58,503 nt of DNA. Origin: Actinomycetes bacterium (lineage in GTDB: Bacteria > Actinomycetota > Thermoleophilia > Solirubrobacterales > Solirubrobacteraceae). Location of the stretch: NCBI GenBank assembly GCA_021792455.1, contig JAJYUP010000001.1:1-58503 (forward strand), given 5' to 3'. The notes under the pieces are model-generated. The model saw nothing but the letters and a program-made list of their open reading frames with translations. It was not told where the DNA came from and did not search any database. Position numbers and translations under genes: made by a program. The stretch's first letter is position 1, and the number at the start of each line of letters is the position of its first letter. Positions 1,783 to 16,020 of this stretch are shown here, one piece after another.

Positions 1783-3246
1783 TCAGACATCCGCGAGCGC
1801 ACTGATGATCTCGCTCACGGCGCTCTTCGCGTCGCCAAAGAGCATCGAGGTCTTCGGGTCGAAGTAGAGCTCGTTCTCGATGCCCGCGAAGCCGGGGTTC
1901 ATCGACCGCTTGATGACGATCACAGACCTGCTGTCGGCGACCTCGAGGATCGGCATGCCGTAGATCGGCGAGGAGGGCGTGTTCTTCGCGGCCGGGTTCG
2001 TGACGTCGTTCGCACCGATCACGAGCGCAACGTCGGTGCGCTGGAACTCTGGGTTGATCTCGTCCATCTCCTTCAGCTGATCGTATGGCACATCCGCCTC
2101 CGCGAGCAGCACGTTCATGTGTCCGGGCATCCGCCCGGCGACCGGGTGAATCGCATACTTCACGTCCACGCCGCGACGCTCGAGCTCAGAGGCGAGTTCC
2201 CTGACTGCATGCTGAGCCTGGGCGACCGCCATCCCATAGCCGGGCACGATCACGACCCTGCTCGCATAGCCGAGCTGGATCGCCGCATCCGCTGCGCTGA
2301 TCGAACGCACGACGCCCGCGTGCTCACCAGCGCCTGCCGCCCCAGCAACAGCGCCTGTGCCGCCGAAGCCGCCCGCGACGATCGCGGGGATCGAGCGGTT
2401 CATCGCCTTGGCCATCAGGTTCGTGAGGATCGTGCCGGAGGCGCCGACCATCATTCCGAACACGATGAGCGCAGGGTTGTTCAGCGCCATGCCCGTCGCC
2501 GCGGCGGAGACACCTGTGAACGCGTTCAAAAGCGCGATGACCACCGGCATGTCGGCACCGCCGATCGGCAGGACGACGAAGTTGCCAAGCGCCGCAGCCG
2601 CAACCAGCATGCCGACGAACGGCCATTCAGAGTGAGCCCCGGCTATCAGATACACGCCGAGACCGAGTGCAACGCAGAGCAGCAGGAGGTTGACGAGCTG
2701 CTGCGCTGCGCCAAGCGTGATCGGCCGCCCTGGCAGCACTTCCTGCAGCTTGCCGAAGGCGATGTTCGATCCCCAGAATGACACTGAGCCGATGATCGCC
2801 GCAAGCACCGAGAAGATCGCGACATAGGTCGGCAGGGCGGCGAGATGAGCTCCAGAGGCCGCGCTGTCGGCGCCATATGTGGAGCCATGGCTGCGAAACT
2901 CGACCCAGGCGATCAGCGCGACTGCCCCACCACCGACGCCGTTGAAGAGCGCGACCATCTGCGGCATCGCGGTCATCTTCACCTTCCGCGCCGCAGGAAT
3001 CCCGATCGCCGCGCCGAGCACGATCCCAATCGCGATCAACCCCCAGTTGCCCTCGCCCTTACTCAAAAGCGTCGCGATCACGGCAATCGCCATCCCGACG
3101 GCCGCGATCCTGTTGCCGCGCACAGCCGTCTTCGGGCCGACGAGACCACGCAGGCCCTGGATCATCAGGATGAAAGCGACGATGTAGAGGCTGTAGGTGA
3201 AGCTCGCAGACTGCACGACGCTCGTCGCGACCGGCAGCGAGCTCAT
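1783..3246 (-). CDS. pntB: NAD(P) transhydrogenase subunit beta
   Basis: Beta subunit (487 aa) of the proton-translocating transhydrogenase, which drives NADPH formation from NADH with the proton motive force. About eight hydrophobic segments occupy residues 10-260. The NADP-binding domain III follows, with VPGYGMAVAQAQ near residue 335 and the diagnostic RMPGHMNVLLAEAD near 370. Its ATG overlaps the pntA2 stop by four bases (ATGA), indicating translational coupling. Length and domain order are normal for the family. Confidence 0.97.
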   Translation of the reverse strand: MSSLPVATSVVQSASFTYSLYIVAFILMIQGLRGLVGPKTAVRGNRIAAVGMAIAVIATLLSKGEGNWGLIAIGIVLGAAIGIPAARKVKMTAMPQMVALFNGVGGGAVALIAWVEFRSHGSTYGADSAASGAHLAALPTYVAIFSVLAAIIGSVSFWGSNIAFGKLQEVLPGRPITLGAAQQLVNLLLLCVALGLGVYLIAGAHSEWPFVGMLVAAAALGNFVVLPIGGADMPVVIALLNAFTGVSAAATGMALNNPALIVFGMMVGASGTILTNLMAKAMNRSIPAIVAGGFGGTGAVAGAAGAGEHAGVVRSISAADAAIQLGYASRVVIVPGYGMAVAQAQHAVRELASELERRGVDVKYAIHPVAGRMPGHMNVLLAEADVPYDQLKEMDEINPEFQRTDVALVIGANDVTNPAAKNTPSSPIYGMPILEVADSRSVIVIKRSMNPGFAGIENELYFDPKTSMLFGDAKSAVSEIISALADV

Positions 3247-3626
3247 CCACCGGCCCCCGTCTGCGAAGAGCCTGACCCTGCAGCGCTCCGCTCCGGCTTT
3301 TGTCCGTCGGCGGGGGAGCTCTCCGCAGCTGTCGGCTTCTTTGCCTTGAACATGTCGAGCATCCTGTCCGTCACAAAAAAGCCGCCGACGATGTTGATCG
3401 TGCCAAACATCACCGCGATGACAAGCAGCGCCTCGCTCAGCGCCCCGAGTTTCGCGAGCCCGAGAAGAAGCAGCGCGCCGACGAGCACGATGCCATGGAT
3501 CGCGTTCGTGCCTGACATCAGCGGCGTGTGCAGCGTGTTCGGGATCTTCGAGATGACTATGAACCCGACGAAGCCGGCGAGCACGAGGATCGCGAGGTTC
3601 GTCGTCAGCACGCTCGCGACGATCAA
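3243..3626 (-). CDS. pntA2: NAD(P) transhydrogenase membrane subunit alpha-2
   Basis: Small membrane subunit (about 127 aa) of the three-subunit transhydrogenase. Three hydrophobic helices surround the conserved IPNTLHTPLMSGTNAIHGIV signature, and a polar Lys/Pro/Ser-rich tail follows. The reading frame is open back to 3803, inside pntA1. I chose the TTG at 3626 because GGGGGAG lies five bases upstream and the protein then starts just before the first helix; a GTG at 3656 is possible. It is the middle gene of the operon and overlaps pntB by ATGA. Confidence 0.9.
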   Translation of the reverse strand: MIVASVLTTNLAILVLAGFVGFIVISKIPNTLHTPLMSGTNAIHGIVLVGALLLLGLAKLGALSEALLVIAVMFGTINIVGGFFVTDRMLDMFKAKKPTAAESSPADGQKPERSAAGSGSSQTGAGG

Positions 3627-3714
3627 GAGAGCTCCCCCACCTTCATCGAGAAGCACGCCGTACGACGGCGGAGCCTCTCCGACGGCAGAGATCGCAAGAC
3701 CTGCGCTGTGACGC

Positions 3715-4863
3715 TCAAGACACCCCTCCTGTGATGGCGGCCGCGTCGAGAGCGGCCTTCGCTCCGTCATGGACCACCTCGCCATCGCGGACGATGCAGG
3801 CACCGCTCACGATCTCGTCATCGAAGTCGAGGTGGATCTGCCCGTCCTCGCCGACGATCAGCTCGAGCAGGGCCAGGACGTTGCGCGCGAACAGCTGGGA
3901 GGCGTGCTCAGCCATGCTCGCAGGGAGGTTGAGCGGCGAGACGATCTTCACGTCGTGCCTCACGATGACCTCTCCAGGAGCCGTCAGCTCGCAGTTGCCG
4001 CCAGCCTCTCCCGCGAGATCGATGATCACCGACCCCGCCCTCATGCCCTTCACCGCCTCCTCCGTGATGAGCTTCGGCGCGGGACGCCCTGGAACGAGAG
4101 CGGTGCTGATCACGACGTCGAACTCCTTTATCGCCTCGGTCAGCGCCTGCTGCTGGCGTTCCCGCTCCTGCTCTGTGAGCTCCCGCGCATAACCGCCTTC
4201 GCCGGCAGCCTCGAGCCCGAGGTCGAGCCAGCTCGCACCAAGGGAGGCGACCTGCTCAGCCACCTCTGGACGCACGTCGTAGCCGGTCGTCCGGGCACCA
4301 AGCCGCCTCGCTGTCGCAAGCGCCTGCAGCCCCGCGACACCTGCCCCGAGCACGAGCACCTTCGCGGGCGGGATCGTGCCGGCCGCCGTCATCAGCATCG
4401 GGTAGAAGCGCCCGAGATGCTCCGCGCCCAGCAGCGCCGCCTCGTAACCGGATACGTTCGCCTGTGAGGAGAGCGCATCCATCGCCTGAGCGCGCGATAT
4501 GCGGGGAATCGCCTCCATCGCGATCGCAGTCGCCTTCGCCTGGGCAAGCGCCTTCGTCGTGCTTGGGCTGGTCAGCGGCGCGAGGAACCCGATGAGCAGG
4601 CACCCCTGCCCAAGCATCGCGATCTCCTCCTCGCTTGGTGGTGCGATCTTCAGCACGACATCGCATCTCCACACCTCAGCGGCCTCTCTGCTCAGCTGTG
4701 CCCCTGCCGCAGCGTAGGCGGCGTCTGGCAGCAGGGCACCCTCCCCTGCGCCCTGCTCCACGAGCACCTCGACTCCCATGCCCGTCAACTTTGAGACGAC
4801 CTCAGGGACGAGGGCGACCCTCCGCTCCCCAGCGAGCCGTTCCTTTGGCACTCCGACCTTCAT
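3715..4863 (-). CDS. pntA1: NAD(P) transhydrogenase subunit alpha-1
   Basis: Soluble NAD-binding domain I (382 aa) of the transhydrogenase, related to alanine dehydrogenase. It starts MKVGVPKERLAGERRVALVP, the canonical N-terminus, at the ATG at 4863; an upstream extension of the frame to 4959 has no family similarity. The Rossmann motif VLGAGVAGLQALATARRLGA lies around residues 167-186. It is the first gene of the pntA1-pntA2-pntB operon and is divergent from the cobalamin adenosyltransferase, with about 125 bp between the start codons. Confidence 0.96.
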   Translation of the reverse strand: MKVGVPKERLAGERRVALVPEVVSKLTGMGVEVLVEQGAGEGALLPDAAYAAAGAQLSREAAEVWRCDVVLKIAPPSEEEIAMLGQGCLLIGFLAPLTSPSTTKALAQAKATAIAMEAIPRISRAQAMDALSSQANVSGYEAALLGAEHLGRFYPMLMTAAGTIPPAKVLVLGAGVAGLQALATARRLGARTTGYDVRPEVAEQVASLGASWLDLGLEAAGEGGYARELTEQERERQQQALTEAIKEFDVVISTALVPGRPAPKLITEEAVKGMRAGSVIIDLAGEAGGNCELTAPGEVIVRHDVKIVSPLNLPASMAEHASQLFARNVLALLELIVGEDGQIHLDFDDEIVSGACIVRDGEVVHDGAKAALDAAAITGGVS

Positions 4864-4988
4864 GGTGCGCGACAACGTACCCGATCGCGCTGGAAGGCGA
4901 CGTGCAGGACACCGACGACCGCCGACCTGCAGCGAATGCACGGCAGGATGACACCCCAAGGACGGGATATGCGAGACTCGCAGGTGCT

Positions 4989-5819
4989 TTGACGGTCAAT
5001 CTCACGAGGATCTACACGAGGCTGGGCGACGCGGGGCAGACCCACCTCGGCGACATGAGCAGAGTCTCGAAGCTCGAGCCGCGGGTGGAGGCGTATGGCA
5101 CCGTCGACGAGCTCAACGCGACGATTGGGCTCGCCCTGCTTTCGCCTGCGCTCTCCGACAGGAGTTCCCAGTGGCTGCGGCGCATTCAGAACGACCTGTT
5201 CGACGTCGGCGCCGATATCGCAGTGCCGCCGAGCGCCGACGAGCGAGGCGAGAGCAGCGAGAGCGGAGCGGGCGCGAGTGCCGAGGGAACCGACGTCGAG
5301 GCAAGCGGAGCCGCGAGCAGGCACAAGGCCCCGAGGAGCAGGTTGCGCATCACCCCTCAGTACGTCGCCTGGCTCGAGCAGGCCTGCGATGAGGTGAATG
5401 AGGCGCTGCCGCCGCTGCGTTCGTTCGTCATCCCTGGAGGCAGCGAGGCCGCCGCGCGCATCCACATCGCCCGCACCGTGTGCCGGCGGGCGGAGCGGAG
5501 GGCGCTCGCGGTGCCTGACCTCAACCAAGAGGTGATCCGCTACCTCAACCGGCTCTCCGACCTGCTCTTCATACTCGCGCGGGCGGCAAATGAGCTTTCA
5601 GATCAGACGAGAGGTGACGACGGCGAGGAGAGCGCGGACCGCGGTGAAAGCGGCGCAGCCCGAGCTCTGCGCGGCGCAGACGAGAACCGCACAGGCAGAG
5701 CAGACCACAGCGGTCGGGGTGGCGAGGAGCACGCTCCGCCTGATGCGGATCGCCCCACGACGTCGCTGTGGCAACCTGGCGCCCACGAGGGAAGGGATCT
5801 CCCGCGGCAGGAGGGCTGA
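4989..5819 (+). CDS. pduO: PduO-type cob(I)alamin adenosyltransferase
   Basis: Transfers the adenosyl group of ATP to cob(I)alamin, giving adenosylcobalamin. The N-terminus LTRIYTRLGDAGQTHLGDMS is the family ATP-binding signature, followed by EAYGTVDELNATIGLA and the C-terminal RTVCRRAERR...YLNRLSDLLFILAR. The TTG at 4989 is chosen because it gives the usual short leader before LTRIYTR and has AGGTG just upstream. Two oddities: an acidic Ser/Gly/Glu insertion of about 35 residues in the middle, and a hydrophilic tail of about 75 residues after the conserved end. The tail has weaker third-position GC than the core and overlaps an opposite-strand frame (5598-5897). A neighbouring B12 uptake operon fits its role. 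Confidence 0.92.
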   Translation: MTVNLTRIYTRLGDAGQTHLGDMSRVSKLEPRVEAYGTVDELNATIGLALLSPALSDRSSQWLRRIQNDLFDVGADIAVPPSADERGESSESGAGASAEGTDVEASGAASRHKAPRSRLRITPQYVAWLEQACDEVNEALPPLRSFVIPGGSEAAARIHIARTVCRRAERRALAVPDLNQEVIRYLNRLSDLLFILARAANELSDQTRGDDGEESADRGESGAARALRGADENRTGRADHSGRGGEEHAPPDADRPTTSLWQPGAHEGRDLPRQEG

Positions 5820-5918: not shown

Positions 5919-7835
5919 CTACGGCCCTGCGCTCTCGCGAAGCAGGGACTTCAGAGCGGCCATCCACCGGACAGCGATCGCCTCCGCCCCCTCGAGAGCG
6001 CGCCTTGCAAGGGTCGCCGCACGCGCAGCTTCACCGCCCCTCGAATGAGCCGCCGGCGGCACCGCCCCCGCCCTCGCTGCACTGCCGCCCTTCGAGGCGC
6101 TGCCGCCCTGGGGGCCGCCGCCGCGCTTCGAGCCGCTGCCCCCCTTCGCGCCGCTGCCCCCCTTCGCGCCGCTCCCGCCCTGGCGGCCGCTCCCGCGCTG
6201 CTTCGTCGCGCTCCCGCGCTGCGAGCCGCTGCCCCCCTGTCGCCCCTGTCGCCCCTGCTCCACTGGCCTCTGCGCTTGCGAGACTGGCAGCGGCTTCTCA
6301 ACAAGGGCGGGAAGCACCTCTGAGGTCACCCACACAGGTGTCTGGGCGCTTGCCTGCGAGTAGCGGATGCTTCCATTTCCAGCTTGAAGGCCCAGCAGAT
6401 AAGCAAGCGGAGAGTGATCCATCTCTGAGAGCGCTTTGACGGCGAGAAGGCCCTGGACGGCCCACGCAGTCGACTGGGCGTTCGCTTCACCGCCGGCCTG
6501 CTGTGGGAAGCCGCCACTTCTCGCCTGGGCTGAGGCCAGGTAGGAGACGGCGCTCGAGACCACGTGGCCCCTCCCAAGCCCAGCGGCGGCGAGCGCCTCG
6601 AGCACCGCGCCTGTGTCATCGACTTCGCTCGATGAGCCCCTGCCTGCAAAGCTGAAGCCTCCGTCTTCGTTCTGCTGCGAGGTCAGCCACCGCGCGGCGG
6701 CGTCGATCGCTCCTGAGCGCGCAGCGATCCCTGCCGCCCTCAGCGCGAGGATCGCAAAGGCAGTCGTGTTCACCTCGCCTTCGAAGGAGCCGCTCGACTC
6801 GCGCGCAGCCATCAGGCGCGCAAGCAGCTCATCGGAGCCCAGCTTTTCGGAGGGCAGCCCGCAGGCGTGCAGGGCGAGCATCGTGCGCTCGATGTCTCCG
6901 GTGGATTCCAGGTGCGTTGAGCTCAGGGAAAGCGCCTGCGCCAACGTCGGTCCGCCGCCGTCGCGCACTTCGCAGCCTTCGCCGCCCGCCGCCGCAAGGC
7001 CGATCGCCGCCCAACCTGTGTAAAGCGAAGTGCTCTCAGCGCCGGGAGACGCGCCGAAGCCGCCGTCAGGCCTCTGCGCAGAGGCGAGATAGCGGACGGC
7101 CGCCTTCACCGCCTCCTCGAGCGACCTGTGCCCTCCCGTGCTCAGGGAGGCAGCAGACGCGCGCTGAGGGGAGACCGACGCGAGAGCGAAGCAGATCAGC
7201 GCCGAAAGCAGACAAGCGCCTGCAGCCCCGCTTCGCCAGTGCACGGTGCTTCTCGCCTGCGCGCGGCGCAGCAGCCGCACGAGCTCAGGGGCGAACGCAA
7301 GCCCGAACAGAAACGTTGAGATGATGTTCGTCAGATCGAAGGGCAGCGCGCTCGCCGCTGTCGCGAGGAACGCCGCTGGCGTGTGGATCGCACCGAGCGT
7401 CCAGGTGTAGAGGTTCATCACTTCATTGGCGATGAACGCCGCAAAGGCGCAGCCCAGGGCGAGTGTCAGTCGTTTCAGGCGGCGGCGGCTCATCTTCGCC
7501 GCTGCCGCGCCGAGCAGCCCGACGATGCCCCAGCCCGTCATCTGCCACGGGGTGTATGGGCCCTGTCCGAAAACCATGTTTGAGGTCAGCATCCCCAGCG
7601 CGCCGACGACGAACCCAGGCAGCGGCCCAAGCGCGTAGCCGACGGCGAACGTCATCGCCGTGATCGGCTTCACCTCGTCGAGCGCTGCGAAGGCGTCCCT
7701 GCCGAGCGCCGCCAATGCGGACAGCGTCGCCACGAGCGCGACCGTCCGCGCTGAGGGCCGTGAGCGCTCATAGGCAAGCCAGCCTGCCAGAAGCGCAGCC
7801 GCTATCACCGCAAAGGATGCGACTGGCCAGCTCAC
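5919..7835 (-). CDS. ECF transporter S component fused to alpha/alpha-toroid domain
   Basis: A 638-aa fusion. Residues 1-190 are a polytopic ECF substrate-binding (S) component with the signature GQGPYTPWQMTGWGIVGLLG (89-108), typical of CbrT-like B12 S components. An extra hydrophobic segment at about 203-222 ends in ASA-AS, resembling an exported-domain boundary. Residues 235-515 resemble the prenyltransferase/squalene-cyclase toroid, with repeats RPDGGF (255-260), NEDGGF (389-394) and ARSGGF (438-443). A Gly/Ser/Lys/Arg-rich linker (525-600) and a short C-terminal helix follow. The GTG at 7835 is chosen because it overlaps the ATPase stop as GTGA and has GGGGGAGA upstream. Inference: the toroid sits outside the cell and helps bind cobalamin, as the toroid domain of transcobalamin does. 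Confidence 0.88.
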   Translation of the reverse strand: MSWPVASFAVIAAALLAGWLAYERSRPSARTVALVATLSALAALGRDAFAALDEVKPITAMTFAVGYALGPLPGFVVGALGMLTSNMVFGQGPYTPWQMTGWGIVGLLGAAAAKMSRRRLKRLTLALGCAFAAFIANEVMNLYTWTLGAIHTPAAFLATAASALPFDLTNIISTFLFGLAFAPELVRLLRRAQARSTVHWRSGAAGACLLSALICFALASVSPQRASAASLSTGGHRSLEEAVKAAVRYLASAQRPDGGFGASPGAESTSLYTGWAAIGLAAAGGEGCEVRDGGGPTLAQALSLSSTHLESTGDIERTMLALHACGLPSEKLGSDELLARLMAARESSGSFEGEVNTTAFAILALRAAGIAARSGAIDAAARWLTSQQNEDGGFSFAGRGSSSEVDDTGAVLEALAAAGLGRGHVVSSAVSYLASAQARSGGFPQQAGGEANAQSTAWAVQGLLAVKALSEMDHSPLAYLLGLQAGNGSIRYSQASAQTPVWVTSEVLPALVEKPLPVSQAQRPVEQGRQGRQGGSGSQRGSATKQRGSGRQGGSGAKGGSGAKGGSGSKRGGGPQGGSASKGGSAARAGAVPPAAHSRGGEAARAATLARRALEGAEAIAVRWMAALKSLLRESAGP

Positions 7836-9469
7836 GCCGCGATCTCCCCCGCCCCAGCCCGCCTCACAGCCTCCGCTCCCTGCTCTGGCAGCAGCGCTCC
7901 TGAGAGCCCTCCGAGGATCCTTGCCGTCTCGGTCGCGAAGTACCAGCCGCCGGCGAGCAGCTCGCTGCTCTGTCCGTCGGCGATCACCTCTCCGTCGGCG
8001 AGCAGGATCACGCGCTCTGCGCACGCAGCCGCAAACTCTGGATCGTGGGTCGCGACGATCACCGTCTGCCCTTCGCGTGCGCGGCTCCTGCACTCGACTG
8101 CGAGGGCAGCCTTGCTCGCGCGGTCCATCCCCCTCGTCGGCTCGTCGAGGGCGAGCACGCTCTGCCTTCGAGCTGGAGGGCTCACGATCGCAAGCGCGAG
8201 GCGCTCACGCTCCCCTCCGGAGAGATCCCTTGGGTGCCGATCCTTCAGGTGAAGCAGCGAAGCCGCCGAGAGCGCCTGCTCTGAGGCTTCGGCGGCGACG
8301 GTGTCCCTCAGAAAGTAGTCCGTCGGGTTCTGCAGAAGCAGGGAGACGGGGCCAGCCGCCTCGATCCTGCCGCGCGTCGGCTTCATCAGGCCCGCGGCGT
8401 GGCGCAGAAGGGTTGACTTGCCAGCACCATTGCGTCCCATGAGTGCTACGGTCTCGCCCGCCTCGAACCTCAGGGTCACTCCGCGCAGGATCGCCGCGCC
8501 CCCCTTCAGCTCATGCCAGACGTTGCGAAACGCAAGCATCGGCTCGCCTGACGATTGCGCTCGCAAGGGCAGCGGCACCCGCCACCGCTTCAGCGCTCCG
8601 CCCGCGCGCGCGTGAGATCTCAGTTGCCGGTTTTCAGGGGTGGCGGCGGGCAGCATGCCCGCCGCCCGGAGTGTGTTGCGCGCAGCCCGCACGCTTCTTG
8701 GTGGAGGCTTCAGATCGAGCAGCCTCAACAGGCGCGCCCCAGGGGTCTCCAGAGACACGCAGTGTGTTGCCGCCCACTCCAACAGCGACGCAGGGTCGCC
8801 GTCCCAGGCGACCCTGCCCCCCTCAACGGCGATGGCGCGATCGGCTGCTTTCAGGCAACGCTCGAGACGGTGCTCTGCGATCAGGATCGTCGTCTCCCAC
8901 TCGTCGTTCAGGCGCGAAAGCAGACCGATCAGCTCGTCTCCAGCGACGGGATCCAGCTGTGAGGTCGGCTCGTCGAGCAGCACCAGCCGCGGCCTGCCTG
9001 CAAGCGCCGCGGCAAGCGCGACCTTCTGCTTCTCGCCGCCTGAGAGCTCAGCGGTGCGCCGGCTCAGCAGATGCTCGATGCCCAGAGCGAGCGCGACCTC
9101 CTCGACGGCACGCGCGACGCTCAGCGGATTGGCGCCCCTGCTCCGGAGGGGAAGCTCGATCTCTGCGCGCACAGAGCTCATCACGAGCTGGCTCTCTGGG
9201 TCCTGGAACAGCGCCCCGACATGCGCGCCGATCTCGCCTGGCCCGTGGCTGCGAGTGTCGAGGCCCGCGACGCTCACCCTGCCTGAGATCTCTCCACCAA
9301 AGAAATGCGGCACGAGACCGCATGCTGCGGCCAACAGCGTCGACTTGCCCTGCCCAGTCAGCCCCGCAACGAGGCAGATCTCGCCCTCGCGTATCTGCAG
9401 GTCCACGCCGCGCAGCGACGGCTGCTCTGCCCCTGGGTAGGTGTATGTCACGTGATCGAAGCGGAGCAT
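7832..9469 (-). CDS. ECF transporter tandem ATP-binding protein
   Basis: Energy-coupling ATPase (545 aa) with two fused ABC domains, replacing the separate EcfA1/EcfA2 subunits. The first domain has Walker A GLTGQGKSTLL (about 36-46), signature LSGGEKQK and Walker B VLLDEPTSQLDP. The second has GRNGAGKSTLL, LSGGERERLALAI and VLALDEPTRGMD. It would power cobalamin import together with the T component upstream and the S-component fusion downstream, whose start it overlaps by 4 bp. The ATG at 9469 starts directly at the first ABC domain. Confidence 0.95.
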   Translation of the reverse strand: MLRFDHVTYTYPGAEQPSLRGVDLQIREGEICLVAGLTGQGKSTLLAAACGLVPHFFGGEISGRVSVAGLDTRSHGPGEIGAHVGALFQDPESQLVMSSVRAEIELPLRSRGANPLSVARAVEEVALALGIEHLLSRRTAELSGGEKQKVALAAALAGRPRLVLLDEPTSQLDPVAGDELIGLLSRLNDEWETTILIAEHRLERCLKAADRAIAVEGGRVAWDGDPASLLEWAATHCVSLETPGARLLRLLDLKPPPRSVRAARNTLRAAGMLPAATPENRQLRSHARAGGALKRWRVPLPLRAQSSGEPMLAFRNVWHELKGGAAILRGVTLRFEAGETVALMGRNGAGKSTLLRHAAGLMKPTRGRIEAAGPVSLLLQNPTDYFLRDTVAAEASEQALSAASLLHLKDRHPRDLSGGERERLALAIVSPPARRQSVLALDEPTRGMDRASKAALAVECRSRAREGQTVIVATHDPEFAAACAERVILLADGEVIADGQSSELLAGGWYFATETARILGGLSGALLPEQGAEAVRRAGAGEIAA

Positions 9470-9498
9470 TCGCCGTGCGCTCGCCTTCTCAGCTCAGA

Positions 9499-10428
9499 TC
9501 ACTGCACAAGCCCTGAGTGGCCGATCAACCCTCTCCCGCCGTCGATCAGCCCCCTGCGGTCGAGCAGAGGCAGCAGCGCAGCGAGCGCGATCGCAGCGCA
9601 GAGCGCAACCGTCGCCGCGGAGATCGGCATGTGGATCAGAGGGTAGGCCTGAAAGCTCAGAGGGTGCGCGAGCGTGCCAAGCAGCGCAAGCGCAAGGATC
9701 GCAAGGGCAGACACAGAGAAGGAGATGTCGTGGCGGGAGAGCGGCCTGCGCCTGCCCGCTGCGCGCTTCGCGCTGCAGAAGCCGCGCAGCTCGAGCGTCG
9801 CCGCAATGTCGAGGGAGCGGTCGAGGGCGCTCGAGAAGCTCGCTCCAAGCAGCAGCGCCCGCCGTCGCATCGATCCCCTCGACGGCATCTCCTGCCTCGT
9901 GCGCTGCGCATCCGCAAACCGCTGCGCATCGGCGGCGAGCAGCGGCAGCATCCGAATCGCCACCGATGCCGTCAGCGCTGAGCGGAAGGAGAGACCCATC
10001 GCGCGAGCGATCAGCTCGTCAGGGTCTATCGCGAGGCTGCCGAGCACGCCGAGCAGGATGAAGATGCTCACCTTCAGCGCGAACACGACCCCATAGACGA
10101 GCGCCTCCACCGTCAGGTCTCCCTGTCCGAATGGCCCGAGATCGCCGAGGCGTGCGAACACTGTCAACCCTTCGCGAGAGACGAGCACGTTTACGAAGAC
10201 GATTGGCAGCGCGACCATTGCGATCAGGCGCAGCACGCCGCGCATCTGTGAGCTCAGGCCGGACATCAGCGCCGTCGCGAGGATGACGAGCAGGATCGTC
10301 GACAGCGCGAGCGGGTGGTCGAGGATCAGCGCCGCCGCCCCGAGGCAGGCAAGCCACAGCGTGCCGACCACAGCGCGAGTCGAGTGCAGTGGGCTTGCGA
10401 TCGGCCTGTAGAGGAGCGCGCTGCGCAA
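9499..10428 (-). CDS. ECF transporter transmembrane T component
   Basis: Energy-coupling membrane subunit (309 aa) linking the ATPase to the S component. Hydrophobic segments occupy roughly residues 20-60, 65-85, 105-130 and 240-295. The cytosolic coupling region holds RSALTASVAIRMLPLLAADA and the conserved ATLELRGF, equivalent to the A-x-x-x-E-x-R-G motif of EcfT. A TTG start at 10428 lies 1 bp beyond the preceding stop, with AGGGG six bases upstream. It lies between the lipoprotein and ATPase genes in one operon. Confidence 0.93.
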   Translation of the reverse strand: MRSALLYRPIASPLHSTRAVVGTLWLACLGAAALILDHPLALSTILLVILATALMSGLSSQMRGVLRLIAMVALPIVFVNVLVSREGLTVFARLGDLGPFGQGDLTVEALVYGVVFALKVSIFILLGVLGSLAIDPDELIARAMGLSFRSALTASVAIRMLPLLAADAQRFADAQRTRQEMPSRGSMRRRALLLGASFSSALDRSLDIAATLELRGFCSAKRAAGRRRPLSRHDISFSVSALAILALALLGTLAHPLSFQAYPLIHMPISAATVALCAAIALAALLPLLDRRGLIDGGRGLIGHSGLVQ

Positions 10429-10429
10429 G

Positions 10430-11398
10430 TCAGCCCCTTCTCAGCGGCAGCGGCAGCACCCGTTCGCCATGACCTTCGGCGGCGCCTTCGATTGCAACGG
10501 CGAAATGGCGCTCGAGCGTCGCTTCGTCGAGGTGGTCGGCTGCAGCGAGCACGCCGGCGGCATCTGCCCCCGTCACGATCCACGTCGGTCCCTCGTCTGG
10601 GTAGCGTGTTGCAGCGATCAGACCAGCGTCGCCGCTGATCACCTTCTCTGCGCTGCCTTCAGCGTCGAGCAGCGCAAAGGACCTGCCTGCCCCAAGCACC
10701 CGAACGTAGACGCCGCTCGCGCCTGGGCCGCCTTCGAGCAGGTGCGCGGCGGGCACGCGCCGCAGTTCTCCATATGTGCCGACGAGAACGGACAGCGTGT
10801 CTTCAGATTCGCCAAGCGGCCCGATCGCCCCCACTCCAGCGGGAACGCCAAGCTTCGCGAGCCGCTGCGTCACCGTCCTGCAGGGCCCCTTCTGCGGGTC
10901 GGCGCACTCCAGGCGCACTGGCAGGCGCCTGCCTTCGAGACCGTTCAGGAAAGGCTCAGGATAGGAACCGACCACGGCGGGAGTGTGCTCCGCCTCACCC
11001 CAGTCGTGCAGGTCCCACCAGATCTGCTCTCCCTGCTTCACGTCGACCTCTGCAGCGCCCTTCGAGGCTTCGACACCGTTCACGTAGTAGAACCAGTCGA
11101 ACGGCTTGCCATGCTCAACGCCGCCGGAGTCACCGTCGATGCTCTCGACGAAGCCACCGCCATAGCGAGTGGTGATGTGCATGTTGCGCATCAGCAGGCT
11201 CATCACCGTTTCTGTGCCGGCGACCTTCGGATTTGCAAGCGAAGCGACTGTCTGTTCCCCGAATTCCTTCGTGACGAGCACCTTCACCCCGCCGACGGGC
11301 GCCCCAGGGCCAAGCCCACACCCCGTCACCAGCGTCGCACTCCCAGCCAGCAGCAGCAGTGGCGCAAAGCGGGCGGGCGCACGAACGCACGATCGCAC
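10430..11398 (-). CDS. DUF4430 lipoprotein, putative cobalamin-binding subunit
   Basis: Exported lipoprotein of 322 aa. From the GTG at 11398 the signal peptide is Arg-rich, then LLLLAG, then lipobox LVTGC with the lipidated Cys at residue 27. The preceding GAGGGCGGGC fits a ribosome site; the longer open frame to 11623 lacks a sensible N-terminus. A DUF4430 domain follows (about 37-135: VKVLVTKEFGEQTV ... DWFYYVNGVEASKGAAEVDV ... IWWDLHDW). The rest (140-322) is less clear. DUF4430 corresponds to the C-terminal beta domain of transcobalamin and intrinsic factor (family knowledge). Its place in an ECF operon behind a B12 riboswitch implies cobalamin capture at the cell surface. Confidence 0.87.
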   Translation of the reverse strand: MRSCVRAPARFAPLLLLAGSATLVTGCGLGPGAPVGGVKVLVTKEFGEQTVASLANPKVAGTETVMSLLMRNMHITTRYGGGFVESIDGDSGGVEHGKPFDWFYYVNGVEASKGAAEVDVKQGEQIWWDLHDWGEAEHTPAVVGSYPEPFLNGLEGRRLPVRLECADPQKGPCRTVTQRLAKLGVPAGVGAIGPLGESEDTLSVLVGTYGELRRVPAAHLLEGGPGASGVYVRVLGAGRSFALLDAEGSAEKVISGDAGLIAATRYPDEGPTWIVTGADAAGVLAAADHLDEATLERHFAVAIEGAAEGHGERVLPLPLRRG

Positions 11399-11549
11399 GC
11401 CCGCCCTCAGCCAGTCGCAAGACGCGCGCGCTGAGGTGAGCGAGCCCCACACCAGGGCGTGAGCTGCGCGCATCACGCCCGAGTCGTCCATCAGACGCGC
11501 AAGCGTGCGCCGCACGCCGCGGCTCGCCCTCAGGCGCACCGTCGCCGCT

Positions 11550-12209
11550 CTAGCGAGCCTTCCGTCTGTCCGCTGGGTCAGTGACCCCAGCGGCCTTGCC
11601 AGCTGGAGGACATGCCTTGCCATAGCAGGCGGGCTTGAAGATCAGCTTCTCGCCGCTTTTCAGGGTGAGCCCGCAGACCCCTGCGCTCGCTTCCCTGCCG
11701 TTCACCCAGATGCTCCAGTACCAGTTCGCTTGCGATTTCGAGTTGAAGGGCAGCTTCAGACCGTCGATCCCAATCACCTCATAGTCGGAGTATTCGGCGT
11801 CCCACTTTCCTGACCACCGGCCGCCTGTGGCGCGTTGCAGGGCGCCAGCCGCGGTGTCACCGGCACAGGAGCCGCCGAACCTCGAGACCTTCGGTCCCGT
11901 CAGACTCACCATCTTCTCGACGAGCAGCTTTTTCGCAGGGGGTCGTCCGAAGACCTCGACGGAAGCCCGCTTGCCCCGCTTCGCCTTCGCGTGGGCATGC
12001 CCGCGCCTGCTGCCCTTCTCGCCCCTCTTCGAGCTCGTATGCACCTGCTTCGCACTTGCAGCGCTGTGCGCAGCCAGCTGCGAGTCGCTCTTCTGAGAGG
12101 AGGCCAGCGCCGGCCCTGAGAGCATCAGCGCTGCGGAGGCGCCGATCGCTGCACCTGCGCCAGAGAGCTTCACGAGCAGGTCGCGTGTGTTCTTCGATTC
12201 GTTCGGCAT
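11550..12209 (-). CDS. Secreted DUF4430 protein, first gene after the B12 riboswitch
   Basis: A 219-aa protein with signal peptide (hydrophobic GAGAAIGASAALMLSGPALA, predicted cut at ALA-SS), a basic Lys/Arg/Gly/His-rich spacer at about 55-90, and a C-terminal DUF4430 domain with WYWSIWVNGREASAGVCG and LKSGEKLIFKPACYGKACPP. Four Cys in the domain could form disulfides. The ATG at 12209 follows AAAGGGGTGG; earlier in-frame codons read through the riboswitch and are not used. Unlike its downstream paralogue it has no lipobox. It is separated from the riboswitch 3' end by about 40 bp, so it is the most directly controlled gene. Confidence 0.87.
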   Translation of the reverse strand: MPNESKNTRDLLVKLSGAGAAIGASAALMLSGPALASSQKSDSQLAAHSAASAKQVHTSSKRGEKGSRRGHAHAKAKRGKRASVEVFGRPPAKKLLVEKMVSLTGPKVSRFGGSCAGDTAAGALQRATGGRWSGKWDAEYSDYEVIGIDGLKLPFNSKSQANWYWSIWVNGREASAGVCGLTLKSGEKLIFKPACYGKACPPAGKAAGVTDPADRRKAR

Positions 12210-12249
12210 GTTGCGCCACCCCTTTCCACGAGGGCTTTTGGGCTTTGCG

Positions 12250-12412
12250 GTCGTCGGCAGGTCTCCTGGCTCCTGGGCCGACCCCCTGCACCTTCCCAAG
12301 CGATCGCGATCGCTCAGTGGCTCGCGCACACGGGCGCGTCGCAGGCGACATCCCCAGTCACAGTGGCGGGTCCGCGCCGGAATCACACCGGCTTCCCTTC
12401 ACCTTCGACCGT
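12250..12412 (-). promoter_or_regulatory. Cobalamin (AdoCbl-type) riboswitch
   Basis: On the minus strand the leader shows the conserved parts in order: GGGAAGCCGGTGTGATTCCG, then CCGCCACTGTGA, then GGAAGGTGCAGGGGG and the 3' B12 box GAGCCAGGAGACCTGCC. Downstream, AGCCCT can pair with AAGGGG of the ribosome site of the DUF4430 gene, suggesting translational control. It sits 40 bp before the first gene of the DUF4430-ECF operon, which ties that operon to B12. Confidence 0.96.
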
Positions 12413-12527
12413 CGTCGGATGGCGGAATACTACTCCCAGGGGGCCAATGGCGCTCTGCTCGCCGGCGAGGGGGACGCAGACGAGCGCACAGCTGACCCGC
12501 TGAGGCGAGGGGCAGGCCAGCTGCCGC

Positions 12528-13781
12528 TCAGGGCCAGATGCTCTTCAGGTCAGAGCTCAGGTCGCCAAGCGCAGCCTTCTGTGTGGCATCGAGCTTCGCT
12601 TTTGAGGCGATCAGGCTCCTTGCGACGTCCAGATCCTCTGAGCGCCCAACGGTCAGGGCCGCGCGCAGCACGCCCTGATCCAGGTACCAGCGCGTGAAGC
12701 TCGCGCCATCTCGATCGCCCCGCAGAATCTCCTCGTCGAAGGAGCTTGCTGGGCCGACGTACTCGAGCTCCGCCCAATCGCCGAGCACAGAGAAGAAGTA
12801 GGGAACGACTTCATGCGCGACTTCGCGGCCAAGCATGTTCAGCGCCGCGGTTTCGCCGTGGTTGAAAGCCACGTCCCAGTGCTCCACCCTCAGCCTGCGC
12901 CCATGCAGCACCGAGTCGTACTCACAGACGTCACCAGCGGCAAAGATCCCCTCGGCGCTCGTCCTCAGCATCGCGTCGCACATCACGCCGCCGCTTTCGC
13001 CGAGACGCAGGCCCGCAGACTTCGCAAGCTGGACGTCTGGACTGACGCCGGCGCCGATCACGACGAGCTCGGCGGGCAGATGGAGGCCCCTGTCGGTCAC
13101 CACGACCCTCACGCCACCATCGCCCTCGAACCGCGACAGACCGTCCTCGCCGTGAATCGTCACGCCGTGGCTTCTCAGCAGCTCTTCGAAGAAGCGCCCA
13201 GCCTCTGCGCCGAAGCCGCGTTCGAGGGTCACCGCCTCCTGCATCACGATCGTCGCCTGCCTGCCCATCATCGAGAGCGAGGCGGCAACCTCGCAGGCGA
13301 TATAGGAGCCGCCGATCAGCACGATGTGCTCCGCCTCTGCAGCCGCCTCGCGTATCGCCTCAGCGTTGCCGAGAGTGCGCAGGTAGTGAATGCCATCGAG
13401 GTTGCACCCCTCCACGTTCAAACGGCGCACGTTCGCTCCAGTCGCGATCAATGCGCTGCCGAAGCTCAGCTCATCGCGGCTCGAGAGCGCCGCTGTTCGG
13501 CTGCGAGGGTCGAGCGCGGTCACGCTCGTGCGCGTGCGCAGCTGCACATCGAACTCCTCCCAGAACTCTGGCGGGTCGACGTATGCCTCCTGCCGCTGCT
13601 CGACGCCGCGCAGAAACCCCTTTGAGCAGTTCGGCCTGTTGTATGGAGGGTCGCTCTCGCGGCCGACGATCAGAATCCTGCCTTCTGCGCCCTGTTCGCG
13701 CAGAGTCCTCGCGCACTTCGCGGAGGCGAGCCCTCCTCCGATCAGCAGATAGTCGATCCTCTCCGCGCTCACCTGATCCAT
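12528..13781 (-). CDS. FAD/NAD-dependent oxidoreductase (ferredoxin-reductase/AIF type)
   Basis: A 417-aa flavoprotein disulfide-reductase-fold enzyme without a redox-active Cys pair. FAD motif YLLIGGGLASAKCARTLREQ at the N-terminus, conserved PPYNRPNCSKGFLRG, NAD motif VLIGGSYIACEVAASLSMMG around residue 160, and the second FAD motif EGIFAAGDVCEY around 290. Such proteins usually pass NADH electrons to a ferredoxin or rubredoxin; the partner is not evident here. The ATG at 13781 is the only start after an in-frame stop. Its stop lies about 115 bp from the riboswitch 5' end on the same strand, so it may be transcribed into that region. Confidence 0.88.
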   Translation of the reverse strand: MDQVSAERIDYLLIGGGLASAKCARTLREQGAEGRILIVGRESDPPYNRPNCSKGFLRGVEQRQEAYVDPPEFWEEFDVQLRTRTSVTALDPRSRTAALSSRDELSFGSALIATGANVRRLNVEGCNLDGIHYLRTLGNAEAIREAAAEAEHIVLIGGSYIACEVAASLSMMGRQATIVMQEAVTLERGFGAEAGRFFEELLRSHGVTIHGEDGLSRFEGDGGVRVVVTDRGLHLPAELVVIGAGVSPDVQLAKSAGLRLGESGGVMCDAMLRTSAEGIFAAGDVCEYDSVLHGRRLRVEHWDVAFNHGETAALNMLGREVAHEVVPYFFSVLGDWAELEYVGPASSFDEEILRGDRDGASFTRWYLDQGVLRAALTVGRSEDLDVARSLIASKAKLDATQKAALGDLSSDLKSIWP

Positions 13782-13946: not shown

Positions 13947-15158
13947 TCAGCCCCAGATCGCGTCGAGGATCCGCATCCTCACTGAGCGACCCGCCGGTAT
14001 CCAGGCGGCGAGCACAGCGACGATGCCGAGCAGCACGCCGTCGCGGAGCATCTCGTGGCCACTCGGTCTCAGCGAGACAGGGCCGTTTGGGAAGTGGAAT
14101 GGATGCGCCGCAACGAGCGGCACGATCGCTGCTTCGAAGATCAGGGCGCCGAGCAGCATCGCGAGCGTGGCGTATGCGAGCGCCTTCATGCAGTAGGAGG
14201 CGACGATCGCGCTCGAGCGGATCCCGATCGCACGCTCGATCCCGATCTGCCTGCGCCTGTTCACGAGGTCGACGTAGGTGACCATGAAGATCGTGATCGC
14301 GGCAACGAGCGCGGAGACGACCTTCAGGACGTCGCTTATCAGCCTGTCGCTTCCGAGCTGTTCGTGGATCGGTTCTTCGAGTTCGGCGGCGCTCTCGACG
14401 TCGACAGCGCTCGAGAGCGGCGTGATCTCGCGACGCACCGCTTCGCTTGAAGCGCCTGCGCTCGTCTTCACGAACACCTCGTCGGCCGTGTCGGGCACGC
14501 CGTGCAGCAGCTTCGCAGCCGCCGCATTGGTTGTGAACGCCTTCCCGTCGGCGGCGCTGAATTCGTCGTCGAAGATCCCTGTGACGCGAAAACGATGGCT
14601 GCGCCCGTCGCTCAGGACGACTTCGACCCAGGAGCCGACGTGCACGCTGGACAGCGCGGACCTCAGCTTCGTGAGCTTGCGGCGTCCCCGGCCGACGACG
14701 CTCGCACCGAGCACGATCCCATCGGTTTCCCCTCGCCTCAGCCAGCGGCCTTCAATCATGTCGCGGTACGTCGTGAAGACCCTGTCGTATGCGGCGGGTT
14801 CGGTCGCGTACACAGGCCAACTGCCCCCGCTGCCGCCGGCGAAGGCTTCTCTGCCGACAAGCGTCACCGCTGCGACGCCGGCGACCCCGCGAAGAGAGGC
14901 CACCTCATGCTCGTAGGCTTCGACGTCGGCGATGCCGTGATGGCGGTTCGCAGGGACGATCGCGACATCGCCTGTCGTCGTTTCGCGCAGGCGCAAGAGC
15001 ACGTGGTTCGAGGCGCCCGCGATCAGCGCGGGCAGGAAGAGCATGTTCAGGTAGACGAGCGCCAGCATCGCGATCGTCGCAGCGAGCACCCCCCTGTTGC
15101 TGCGAAGCAGCGAACGGCCGGAGAGGAACAGTGCTACACGCACTCTCGGCGCGCTCAT
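13947..15158 (-). CDS. ABC transporter permease, MacB/FtsX type
   Basis: A 403-aa integral membrane protein with one N-terminal helix (about 22-45), a large extracytoplasmic domain, and three C-terminal helices (about 290-312, 333-358, 375-395): the MacB/LolCE/FtsX layout. VNRRRQIGIERAIGIRSSAIV is the usual cytoplasmic loop between helices 2 and 3. It overlaps the cognate ATPase by ATGA. The substrate is unknown; a lipid, peptide or drug exporter is plausible given the TetR control. Confidence 0.9.
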   Translation of the reverse strand: MSAPRVRVALFLSGRSLLRSNRGVLAATIAMLALVYLNMLFLPALIAGASNHVLLRLRETTTGDVAIVPANRHHGIADVEAYEHEVASLRGVAGVAAVTLVGREAFAGGSGGSWPVYATEPAAYDRVFTTYRDMIEGRWLRRGETDGIVLGASVVGRGRRKLTKLRSALSSVHVGSWVEVVLSDGRSHRFRVTGIFDDEFSAADGKAFTTNAAAAKLLHGVPDTADEVFVKTSAGASSEAVRREITPLSSAVDVESAAELEEPIHEQLGSDRLISDVLKVVSALVAAITIFMVTYVDLVNRRRQIGIERAIGIRSSAIVASYCMKALAYATLAMLLGALIFEAAIVPLVAAHPFHFPNGPVSLRPSGHEMLRDGVLLGIVAVLAAWIPAGRSVRMRILDAIWG

Positions 15159-15973
15159 CCGTGTCCCTCAGAGAGCTCGCCGTCTCGCATGGTCACCGTG
15201 AGCGCCGCGTAGTCGCGATCGTCGGGCTCGTGGGAGACGAAGACGACGGCAACGCGAAGCTCTGCGCTCAGAGCCGCGAGCGTGCGCATCACGACCTGCG
15301 CGGAGGCGGAGTCGAGGTTCGCCGTCGGCTCGTCGGCGAACAGGATCCTCGGCTCGTTCACGAGCGCCCTCGCGATCGCGACGCGCTGCTGCTCGCCGCC
15401 TGAGAGCTCCTTCGGGCGATGGTGCGCGCGCTCTCCCAGGCCCACGAGGTCGAGCTGCTTCAGGGCCCTGCGGCGAGATTGCCGCCTGCTCGCACCACGC
15501 ATCAGCGCGGGGAGAGCGACGTTCTCCTGTGCCGTCAGCTCTTCCAGCAGCGCGTACTCCTGGAAGACGTAGCCCAGCTTTCGCAGGCGCAGCTCCCCTC
15601 GCGCTCGCTGCGACAGCGAGCCGACGTCCTCGCCCTCGATCACGATCCGGCCGGCGTCGGGTGTGTCGATCAGACCGAGTTGGCGCAGGAGCGTCGACTT
15701 GCCGGAGCCGCTGCGGCCGCCGATGCAGACAGTCGCGCCGCTTGCGATCGAGAGCGTCACGTCCCGCAGCGCGGCGACGCTCAGCTTGCCGTGACGGTAC
15801 GTCTTGCACAGATGCTCCGCGACGAGCAGGGGCGGCCTCGAGAAGGCGCTCGTGCTGCTCCTGCACGACGTTCCCCTCGAGGACTCGCGCTCGCCGTCGT
15901 CGCCGCTGTCGCGCTCGCACCGATCCTCACGGCTCGAGCCGCGCCTTCGAGGCAGCTCCGCGTGATCTGTCAT
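15155..15973 (-). CDS. ABC transporter ATP-binding protein, MacB/LolD type
   Basis: Cytoplasmic ATPase of the exporter, 272 aa from the ATG at 15973. Walker A GGRSGSGKSTLLRQL, Q-loop YVFQEYALLEELT, signature ELSGGEQQRVAIARAL, Walker B ILFADEPTANLD and switch His in FVSHEP. The first 40 or so residues are charged and Ser/Arg-rich, so the functional start could lie further in. The open frame extends to 16009 across the palindromic operator, and the ATG at 15973 lies inside the left arm of that palindrome, implying a very short or absent leader. Confidence 0.9.
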   Translation of the reverse strand: MTDHAELPRRRGSSREDRCERDSGDDGERESSRGTSCRSSTSAFSRPPLLVAEHLCKTYRHGKLSVAALRDVTLSIASGATVCIGGRSGSGKSTLLRQLGLIDTPDAGRIVIEGEDVGSLSQRARGELRLRKLGYVFQEYALLEELTAQENVALPALMRGASRRQSRRRALKQLDLVGLGERAHHRPKELSGGEQQRVAIARALVNEPRILFADEPTANLDSASAQVVMRTLAALSAELRVAVVFVSHEPDDRDYAALTVTMRDGELSEGHG

Positions 15974-16008
15974 GTGCGACAGTTTGCCAGAAACTGTCAT
16001 ACATGACA
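15968..16008. promoter_or_regulatory. Palindromic operator between tetR-type gene and ABC exporter
   Basis: Two 18-bp arms (15968-15985 and 15991-16008) match as inverted repeats at 16 of 18 positions around a 5-bp centre; the core half-site is GACAGTTT/AAACTGTC. It fills the space between the divergent starts, so a TetR dimer or pair of dimers bound here would shut off both directions. Confidence 0.88.
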
Positions 16009-16020
16009 AGACGTGCGATC

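What the first reader, a model, noticed from the sequence alone, without database searches (positions are those of the whole stretch)
5919..12412. Bacterial transcobalamin-like B12 capture system coupled to an ECF importer
One operon behind a clear cobalamin riboswitch contains both structural halves of animal B12 carriers: an alpha/alpha toroid (fused to an ECF S component) and DUF4430 domains (two exported proteins), plus ECF T and ATPase subunits. Transcobalamin and intrinsic factor hold B12 between an alpha/alpha barrel and a DUF4430-type beta domain (family knowledge). The inference is that bacteria here assemble the same sandwich from separate surface proteins, handing B12 to the membrane S component.
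Basis: partly seen in the sequence, partly recalled or inferred. Interest (0 to 1): 0.92.

Follow-up and report, generated by a model that had tools for sequence, protein, structure and literature searches.

The report
Transcobalamin-like bacterial vitamin B12 importer
An actinobacterium carries a B12-switched gene set that joins a vitamin B12-type membrane importer to exported protein parts resembling those that animals use to carry B12, which supports and extends a prediction made in 2007.

Summary
A minus-strand operon lies behind a cobalamin riboswitch (79 bits): two DUF4430 proteins, ECF T, fused ECF ATPases, and an S component fused to an alpha/alpha toroid. (1) The S part matches CbrT (6FNP), a characterised B12 S component (E 1.7e-19). 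(2) A D1-type DUF4430 profile finds transcobalamin-2 first among PDB sequences (E 1.9e-5); the D2 model resembles transcobalamin, haptocorrin and intrinsic factor. (3) The layout recurs: riboswitch in 38 of 40 chosen class loci; S and toroid in one ORF in 50 of 53 named loci showing an S.

Weaker points: the toroid is an ordinary toroid-superfamily domain, closest to terpene cyclases; DUF4430-toroid fusions are rare (L034 clear, L176 weak); each domain also occurs without the other; the genome has the B12-synthesis gene CbiC. The B12 sandwich and the hand-over are inference. Burroughs et al. (2007) already predicted bacterial toroid plus transcobalamin-type domains in CbiO/CbiQ operons for B12 scavenging, so this is a new variant of a known, untested kind; the toroid-CbrT tether is the new element.

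The parts
12239..12428 (-). Cobalamin riboswitch (RF00174), upstream of the operon
   Evidence: 79.2 bits, E 6.8e-18
11550..12209 (-). D1: predicted secreted protein (signal read by eye) with a divergent DUF4430 (transcobalamin beta-type) domain near its C-terminus; ATG at 12209
   Evidence: Pfam 20.7 bits, 23.8 bits with neighbours; first row of profile A8, whose best PDB hits are transcobalamins
10430..11623 (-). D2: predicted lipoprotein (lipobox cysteine at residue 102, read by eye; true start uncertain) with a DUF4430 domain and an unassigned C-terminal half
   Evidence: Pfam 50.1 bits; Cys102 invariant in the 20 sequences first aligned, window included; AF2 model pLDDT 93.3; Foldseek rows for 3u7z, TC, HC, IF
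9499..10428 (-). ECF T component (CbiQ family)
   Evidence: PF02361 54.6 bits
7832..9469 (-). Fused pair of ECF ATPases
   Evidence: Two ABC_tran stretches; ECF ATPase models 251 bits, below the equivalog cut-off
5919..7835 (-). S component fused through an extra hydrophobic stretch to an alpha/alpha toroid, probably exported (GTG start at 7835, 638 aa); low-complexity Gly/Ser/Arg/Lys tail
   Evidence: S part matches 6fnp_A, CbrT, E 1.7e-19; model; hydrophobic stretch
6276..7136 (-). Toroid segment of the fusion as used in alignment A5
   Evidence: Prenyltrans 53.7 bits
4635..5819 (+). Neighbouring convergent gene: cob(I)alamin adenosyltransferase (PduO type); the listed TTG start is probably too early
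   Evidence: PF01923 200.6 bits; TIGR00636 174.8 bits, over cut-off

Best explanation
The operon encodes a riboswitch-controlled, dedicated ECF importer for B12-type corrinoids with exported capture domains. The membrane core is a CbrT-type S component, a T component and a fused ATPase pair. Outside the membrane, D2 (lipoprotein) and D1 (secreted) each carry a transcobalamin beta-type DUF4430 domain, and a toroid is tethered to the S component by an extra hydrophobic helix. Inferred, not shown: a DUF4430 domain closes over B12 held at the mouth of the toroid, as in transcobalamin, and the tether brings the vitamin to the S component, which then carries it inward when the ATPases fire. I put B12-family uptake at about 0.9 and the sandwich with direct hand-over at about 0.45.
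For: Riboswitch in the window and in 38 of 40 class loci; the two without (L038, L061) also show no T or S gene. Of 19 stretches scanned from elsewhere in the phylum (20 fetched, chosen for DUF4430 or toroid hits), 12 have a B12 riboswitch, of three Rfam families (RF00174, RF01482, RF01689). S part: 6fnp_A E 1.7e-19, next S component (folate) E 1.5; 6FNP is ECF-CbrT (PMC5997447 passages). DUF4430: with the D1 profile the 7 best of 11 PDB rows are transcobalamin-2 or -1, E 1.9e-5 to 0.11; the L034 fusion alone finds transcobalamin-2 at E 0.0024; D2 model: TC and HC at Foldseek probability 1.00, IF 0.99 (no row reaches E 0.001). Toroid and DUF4430 go together: one ORF in L034 (both over the Pfam cut-offs) and in L176 (DUF4430 16.9 and toroid 23.3 bits, both below cut-off); riboswitch-led D1-toroid pairs in L057, L058, L059 and L065. 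DUF4430 is commoner in genomes without CbiC: 71 of 112 against 11 of 37, Fisher p 5e-4, relatedness not corrected for.
Against: The window's genome itself has CbiC, so it may make corrin. RF00174 occurs in 145 of 149 class genomes anyway, so only its place counts. Toroid: no specific affinity to transcobalamin alpha. DUF4430-toroid fusion is rare: by my profiles L034 alone of 140 loci. Separable domains: S without toroid in the stretch fetched in 7 of 31 class loci with an S (three of these genomes have a toroid at a second site) and in 4 of 16 phylum loci with an S; toroid without recognised DUF4430 in 5 of 14 phylum loci with a toroid. Four of those five have an SCO2322-like segment (L186, L187 by NCBIfam; L189, L190 by alignment only; for L190 neither Pfam nor NCBIfam sees it). 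In the D2 Foldseek list, BcsB and glycosidase rows stand among the transcobalamin rows. No complex with ligand could be modelled.
Confidence: 0.68

Rival explanations
1. B12 importer, but no sandwich: DUF4430 proteins and toroid are independent capture or spacing modules. Each binds corrinoid (or cell wall) alone and raises the local concentration near a CbrT-type S component that does its own binding.
For: The domains are separable: S with DUF4430 but no recognised toroid in L171, L172, L175, L177; toroid without recognised DUF4430 in L186-L190. No such partners appear in the passages read on CbrT (PMC5997447). The toroid shows no specific transcobalamin likeness.
Against: Fusions of the two domains (L034, weakly L176) and riboswitch-led D1-toroid pairs. 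SCO2322-like partner beside or behind the toroid in four of the five loci where DUF4430 was not recognised.
Confidence: 0.3
2. The imported substrate is a corrinoid precursor or related cobamide (for example cobinamide) rather than complete B12.
For: CbrT supports cobalamin- and cobinamide-dependent growth (PMC5997447, passages). The host has CbiC and an adenosyltransferase next door, so salvage is plausible.
Against: Nothing here separates the two; DUF4430 is enriched in genomes without CbiC.
Confidence: 0.2
3. The toroid is an exported class II terpene-cyclase-like enzyme and is in the operon for another reason.
For: Best Foldseek and sequence hits are drimenyl diphosphate synthase and squalene-hopene cyclase; the middle Asp of the DXDD-like site (motif recalled) is present in 50 of 50 fusion proteins.
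Against: Full DXDD in only 33 of 50 fusions and 7 of 29 of the wider toroid set; the window has EVDD. The toroid travels with the ECF genes or a B12 riboswitch in the loci studied.
Confidence: 0.04
4. A cobalt importer, as the CbiQ/CbiO names suggest.
For: T and ATPase families are shared with cobalt ECF systems.
Against: The S component is CbrT-like and no CbiM family match was found; DUF4430 domains point to corrinoids.
Confidence: 0.03

Closest known systems
Transcobalamin-like (SLBB, DUF4430) B12-scavenging operons predicted by Burroughs et al. 2007 (PMC1796856)
   Same: Exported transcobalamin-type beta-grasp domains, alpha/alpha toroid, CbiO-like ATPase and CbiQ-like T component, often a second paralogous exported domain protein; B12 scavenging proposed.
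   Different: Here the toroid is fused to the S component, which proves to be of the CbrT kind; riboswitch evidence and a survey in Actinomycetota are added. The parts of the 2007 paper that I read do not mention S components or riboswitches. (That Pfam's DUF4430 is the transcobalamin-type SLBB domain is my reading.)
ECF-CbrT of Lactobacillus delbrueckii (PDB 6FNP, PMC5997447)
   Same: Homologous S component, T plus two ATPase domains, a pduO adenosyltransferase gene nearby.
   Different: No exported capture domains are mentioned in the passages read; the ATPases are fused here and the operon has its own ECF module.
Animal transcobalamin, haptocorrin and intrinsic factor
   Same: DUF4430-type beta domain (sequence profile and fold) together with an alpha/alpha toroid.
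   Different: Separate proteins here, the toroid membrane-tethered; toroid not recognisably of the PF01122 family.
SCO2321/SCO2322 protein families of NCBIfam (NF053823, NF040672)
   Same: Toroid plus small protein beside T, ATPase and S genes in L186 and L187; a 4-row SCO2322-like profile aligns to the D1 profile (hhalign 92%, E 6.5e-7).
   Different: The window toroid is far below the SCO2321 cut-off (69 of 300 bits); the SCO2322-like profile finds no transcobalamin in PDB.

Membership tests
Transcobalamin-like SLBB B12-scavenging operon (Burroughs 2007) | Exported domain of the transcobalamin beta type | tested here: met
   export read from the sequence
Transcobalamin-like SLBB B12-scavenging operon (Burroughs 2007) | alpha/alpha toroid linked to it in the same gene set | tested here: met
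   fused in L034 and weakly in L176
Transcobalamin-like SLBB B12-scavenging operon (Burroughs 2007) | CbiO-like ATPase and CbiQ-like T gene in the operon | tested here: met
Transcobalamin-like SLBB B12-scavenging operon (Burroughs 2007) | Host usually lacks key B12 biosynthesis genes | tested here: inconclusive
   Own genome has CbiC; over 149 genomes DUF4430 is enriched where CbiC is missing; one marker gene only
ECF-CbrT type importer | S component homologous to CbrT rather than to other S families | tested here: met
   6fnp_A E 1.7e-19; folate S component E 1.5
ECF-CbrT type importer | T component and two ATPase domains | tested here: met
ECF-CbrT type importer | Cobalamin binding and transport | not testable with these tools
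   Needs protein and uptake assays
Animal transcobalamin/intrinsic factor family | DUF4430-type beta domain homologous to that of transcobalamin | tested here: met
   (D2-only sequence profiles did not find it)
Animal transcobalamin/intrinsic factor family | alpha domain of the Cobalamin_bind family (PF01122) | tested here: not met
   Window toroid: not among its matches listed up to E 10; 4 of 29 toroids weak, best E 0.032; 0 of 149 genomes over cut-off
Animal transcobalamin/intrinsic factor family | Both domains in one chain | tested here: not met
   Separate genes in the window; fusions only in relatives
Animal transcobalamin/intrinsic factor family | B12 held between the two domains | not testable with these tools
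   No complex or ligand modelling on hand
Class II terpene cyclase | Conserved DXDD acid motif (recalled) | tested here: not met
   33 of 50 fusions, 7 of 29 wider toroids; EVDD in the window

The most novel reading that the evidence does not exclude
A transcobalamin-type sandwich is built here in parts on the cell surface, with its toroid half covalently mounted on the CbrT-type S component. The toroid is then the receiving dock: the DUF4430 lipoprotein brings or clamps B12 on it and the vitamin passes directly into the S component. I met no ECF transporter with such an extracellular receptor domain fused to its S component in the literature searches made, none of which asked for that fusion by name.
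Probability: 0.35. Interest if true: 0.78.

Novelty: new variant of a known kind. Interest (0 to 1): 0.52.

Why it matters
Animal B12 carriers were proposed in 2007 to descend from bacterial capture proteins; I found no tested bacterial member in the searches made. This system offers named carriers of the operon with genome sequences (Conexibacter, Solirubrobacter, Svornostia), a likely substrate class and an S component of a characterised kind, so the proposal becomes testable. If the tether works as a dock, it adds an extracellular receptor step to ECF transport. It also suggests a role for the uncharacterised families DUF4430, SCO2321 and SCO2322.

Tried and rejected
Rejected or unhelpful: (a) The D profile and alignment A3 contained segments read from the wrong strand, because genome-search loci are not turned to the match; both were dropped and redone. 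(b) D2 profiles A1 and A4 against PDB sequences gave no transcobalamin; only the D1 profile and the L034 fusion did. (c) A specific toroid-transcobalamin link: PF01122, hhalign, and a profile of intrinsic factor, haptocorrin and transcobalamin alpha domains against 13,683 ORFs of the loci (no significant hit; 8 of 36 hits at E up to 100 were toroids, 78 of the ORFs being toroids). In a shuffle test 41 of 78 toroids, and 3 of 78 reversed toroids, scored above the 99th percentile of shuffles. I take this as superfamily-level likeness only. (d) SCO2321-2325 gave one paper, unrelated by its listing. (e) The 4-row SCO2322-like profile found nothing relevant in PDB. (f) In some searches three of the proteins (L186, L187, L189) were out-of-frame ORFs of mine and their empty results mean nothing; L186 and L187 were redone in frame, L189 was not. 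(g) Passages of PMC2667541 gave nothing on this system.

Dropped rows: phylum locus L188 was left out of the Rfam scan for size (19 of 20 scanned); A6 uses the window and 49 of the 50 named fusions; A7 uses the window and 75 of the 80 D2 segments; A8 uses 44 of the 62 secondary-DUF4430 segments listed plus the window, L057 and L058. The 40 class loci come from 37 genomes and were chosen by hand from the 82 with DUF4430 before the riboswitch search.

Literature searches. No preprints and few subscription papers are held; Rodionov et al. 2009 (cited in the PMC5997447 passages) was not read.
Full report
What is there. The window belongs to a 3.15-Mb, 242-contig draft genome, 83% complete; most named relatives of D2 are Solirubrobacterales (record titles). 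On the minus strand a cobalamin riboswitch (12428-12239, 79.2 bits) precedes five genes that overlap or lie close together: D1 (12209-11550), D2 (11623-10430), T (10428-9499), fused ATPases (9469-7832) and an S-toroid fusion (7835-5919). A convergent PduO-type cobalamin adenosyltransferase lies next to it (4635-5819). D1 scores just under the Pfam cut-off for DUF4430 (20.7 of 23.8 bits), D2 well over it (50.1). D2 has a lipobox-like cysteine that is invariant in the 20 sequences first aligned, window included.

The S component is of the B12 kind. A profile of 50 S-toroid proteins searched against PDB sequences finds 6fnp_A over profile positions 36-205 (E 1.7e-19); the next S component, for folate, has E 1.5. 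6FNP is the ECF-CbrT transporter reported to restore cobalamin- and cobinamide-dependent growth (PMC5997447, passages read).

The DUF4430 domains are of the transcobalamin kind. A profile of 47 D1-type domains gives 11 PDB rows up to E 10; the first seven are transcobalamin-2 (six) and transcobalamin-1, E 1.9e-5 to 0.11; 3u7z, a small Ruminococcus gnavus protein, follows at rank 9. The natural fusion protein of L034 finds transcobalamin-2 with E 0.0024. The AF2 model of D2 (pLDDT 93.3) matches 3u7z, TC:CD320, haptocorrin and intrinsic factor with Foldseek probability 0.99-1.00; E-values are 1.2e-3 and weaker, none reaches 0.001, and BcsB and glycosidase rows stand among them. Profiles of D2 alone did not find transcobalamin by sequence. 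A 2014 paper already notes DUF4430 in the C-terminus of vertebrate transcobalamins (PMC4350170, one passage).

The toroid is real but unspecific. Its part of the model has pLDDT mostly over 90 (522 residues, mean 86.8). Foldseek and sequence searches put terpene cyclases and prenyltransferases first. PF01122 reaches 4 of 29 toroids weakly (best E 0.032), the window's not among them, and none of 149 genomes over its cut-off. Profile comparison with the alpha domains of intrinsic factor, haptocorrin and transcobalamin is not significant. As a group the toroids score above their shuffles with that profile (41 of 78 above the 99th percentile; reversed 3 of 78), which fits distant superfamily kinship.

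Conservation and genome context. DUF4430 occurs in 82 of 149 genomes of the class. Of 40 loci that I chose from these (37 genomes), 38 carry the riboswitch, on the same strand and upstream of the DUF4430 or toroid gene (coordinates). The riboswitch itself is in 145 of 149 genomes, so its place is what counts. Of the 40 loci, 31 show an S component: 12 have it fused to the toroid, 12 have the toroid in another ORF, and 7 lack it in the stretch fetched. In three of those seven genomes (G007, G113, G122) a toroid lies at a second riboswitch-led site with a DUF4430 gene before it (L057, L065, L058); L059 has such a pair behind a second riboswitch in the same stretch. In 80 named loci, 53 show an S and 50 of these have S and toroid in one ORF; two of the other three are cut by a contig end (L116, L138) and one is L125, Solirubrobacter soli. 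The 50 aligned fusions (window included) all have a hydrophobic segment between the parts, which should place the toroid outside; flanking charges did not decide the orientation. DUF4430 is commoner where CbiC is missing (71 of 112 genomes against 11 of 37; Fisher p 5e-4, relatedness not corrected for), but the window's own genome has CbiC and six B12-binding-domain matches.

Beyond the class. A sample of 119 genomes of the phylum, six of the class with the own genome included in the hits, has DUF4430 in 22. Of 20 stretches fetched, seven (L178-L184) show D2, T, ATPases, S and toroid in that order. L176 has DUF4430 and a toroid in one ORF (16.9 and 23.3 bits, both below cut-off), then a second DUF4430 protein, T, ATPases and S, behind an AdoCbl riboswitch. 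L171 and L172 have DUF4430 repeats with a beta-propeller and no recognised toroid. L186 and L187 carry a toroid (SCO2321 family, over cut-off) followed by an SCO2322-family protein; a small profile of SCO2322-like segments from L186, L187, L189 and L190 aligns to the D1 profile with hhalign probability 92%, E 6.5e-7. In L190 such a segment follows the toroid in one ORF, the domain order of transcobalamin, but neither Pfam nor NCBIfam recognises it there. Of 19 of these stretches scanned, 12 have a B12 riboswitch of one of three Rfam families. By my profiles L034 is the only DUF4430-toroid fusion in 140 loci.

Mechanism. Shown by sequence or model: CbrT-type ECF core, B12-type gene control, transcobalamin-type beta domains, an alpha/alpha toroid attached to S. 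Inferred: that DUF4430 and toroid hold one B12 between them, and that the tether passes it to S. For: fusion and pairing of the two domains, and the precedent of animal carriers. Against: each can be missing, fusions are rare, and the toroid lacks a specific likeness. I give about 0.9 to B12-family uptake and about 0.45 to the sandwich with hand-over.

What is known. Burroughs, Balaji, Iyer and Aravind 2007 (PMC1796856; abstract, sections 5, 8 and 10, and the first of two parts of section 7 read) described this clade. They reported bacterial fusions to an alpha/alpha toroid on either side, operons with CbiO-like ATPases and CbiQ-like proteins, a second paralogous exported protein, hosts usually lacking B12 synthesis, a fusion to a beta-propeller, and a proposed transfer to animals. 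What I did not find in the searches made is the toroid-S fusion, the CbrT identity of the S part in such operons, the riboswitch survey, or the link to SCO2321/SCO2322. Hence a new variant of a known kind.

Noticed in passing
L171:4833-9446, L172:3514-9171, L173:6864-10103; also L178-L180 between riboswitch and D2: Beta-propeller-like proteins are fused to DUF4430 repeats (Pfam) or, by my reading of the sequence, stand in the D1 position. A beta-propeller may replace the toroid or D1 in some lineages; compare the beta-propeller B12 binder BtuG of Bacteroides (recalled).
   Followed up: partly
L186:7706-13688, L187:8050-13841: SCO2321 (toroid) and SCO2322 families sit beside T, ATPase and S genes; SCO2322 looks like a divergent transcobalamin beta-type domain.
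   Followed up: partly
window 10430-11000 (C-terminal half of D2): D2 has a confidently modelled C-terminal half of unknown role. The D2 Foldseek list also holds BcsB and GH67/GH115 enzymes; the list gives no aligned ranges, so that these match this half is my guess.
   Followed up: no
window 5922-6270: Gly/Ser/Lys/Arg low-complexity tail behind the toroid, then a short helix-like end; perhaps a cell-wall spacer (reading of the sequence).
   Followed up: no
L039:12918-13306: Two divergent cobalamin riboswitches whose matches overlap by about 35 bases, one leading this operon.
   Followed up: no
L096, L128, L140: Three records titled Bifidobacterium breve MAG carry this operon's D2; the titles look wrong or the bins mixed.
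   Followed up: no
window 12528-13781, 13947-16009 (minus) and 1783-4959 (minus): Neighbours: a ferredoxin-reductase-type flavoprotein, and by reading of the translations a MacB-like ABC pair and a pntAB-like transhydrogenase.
   Followed up: no
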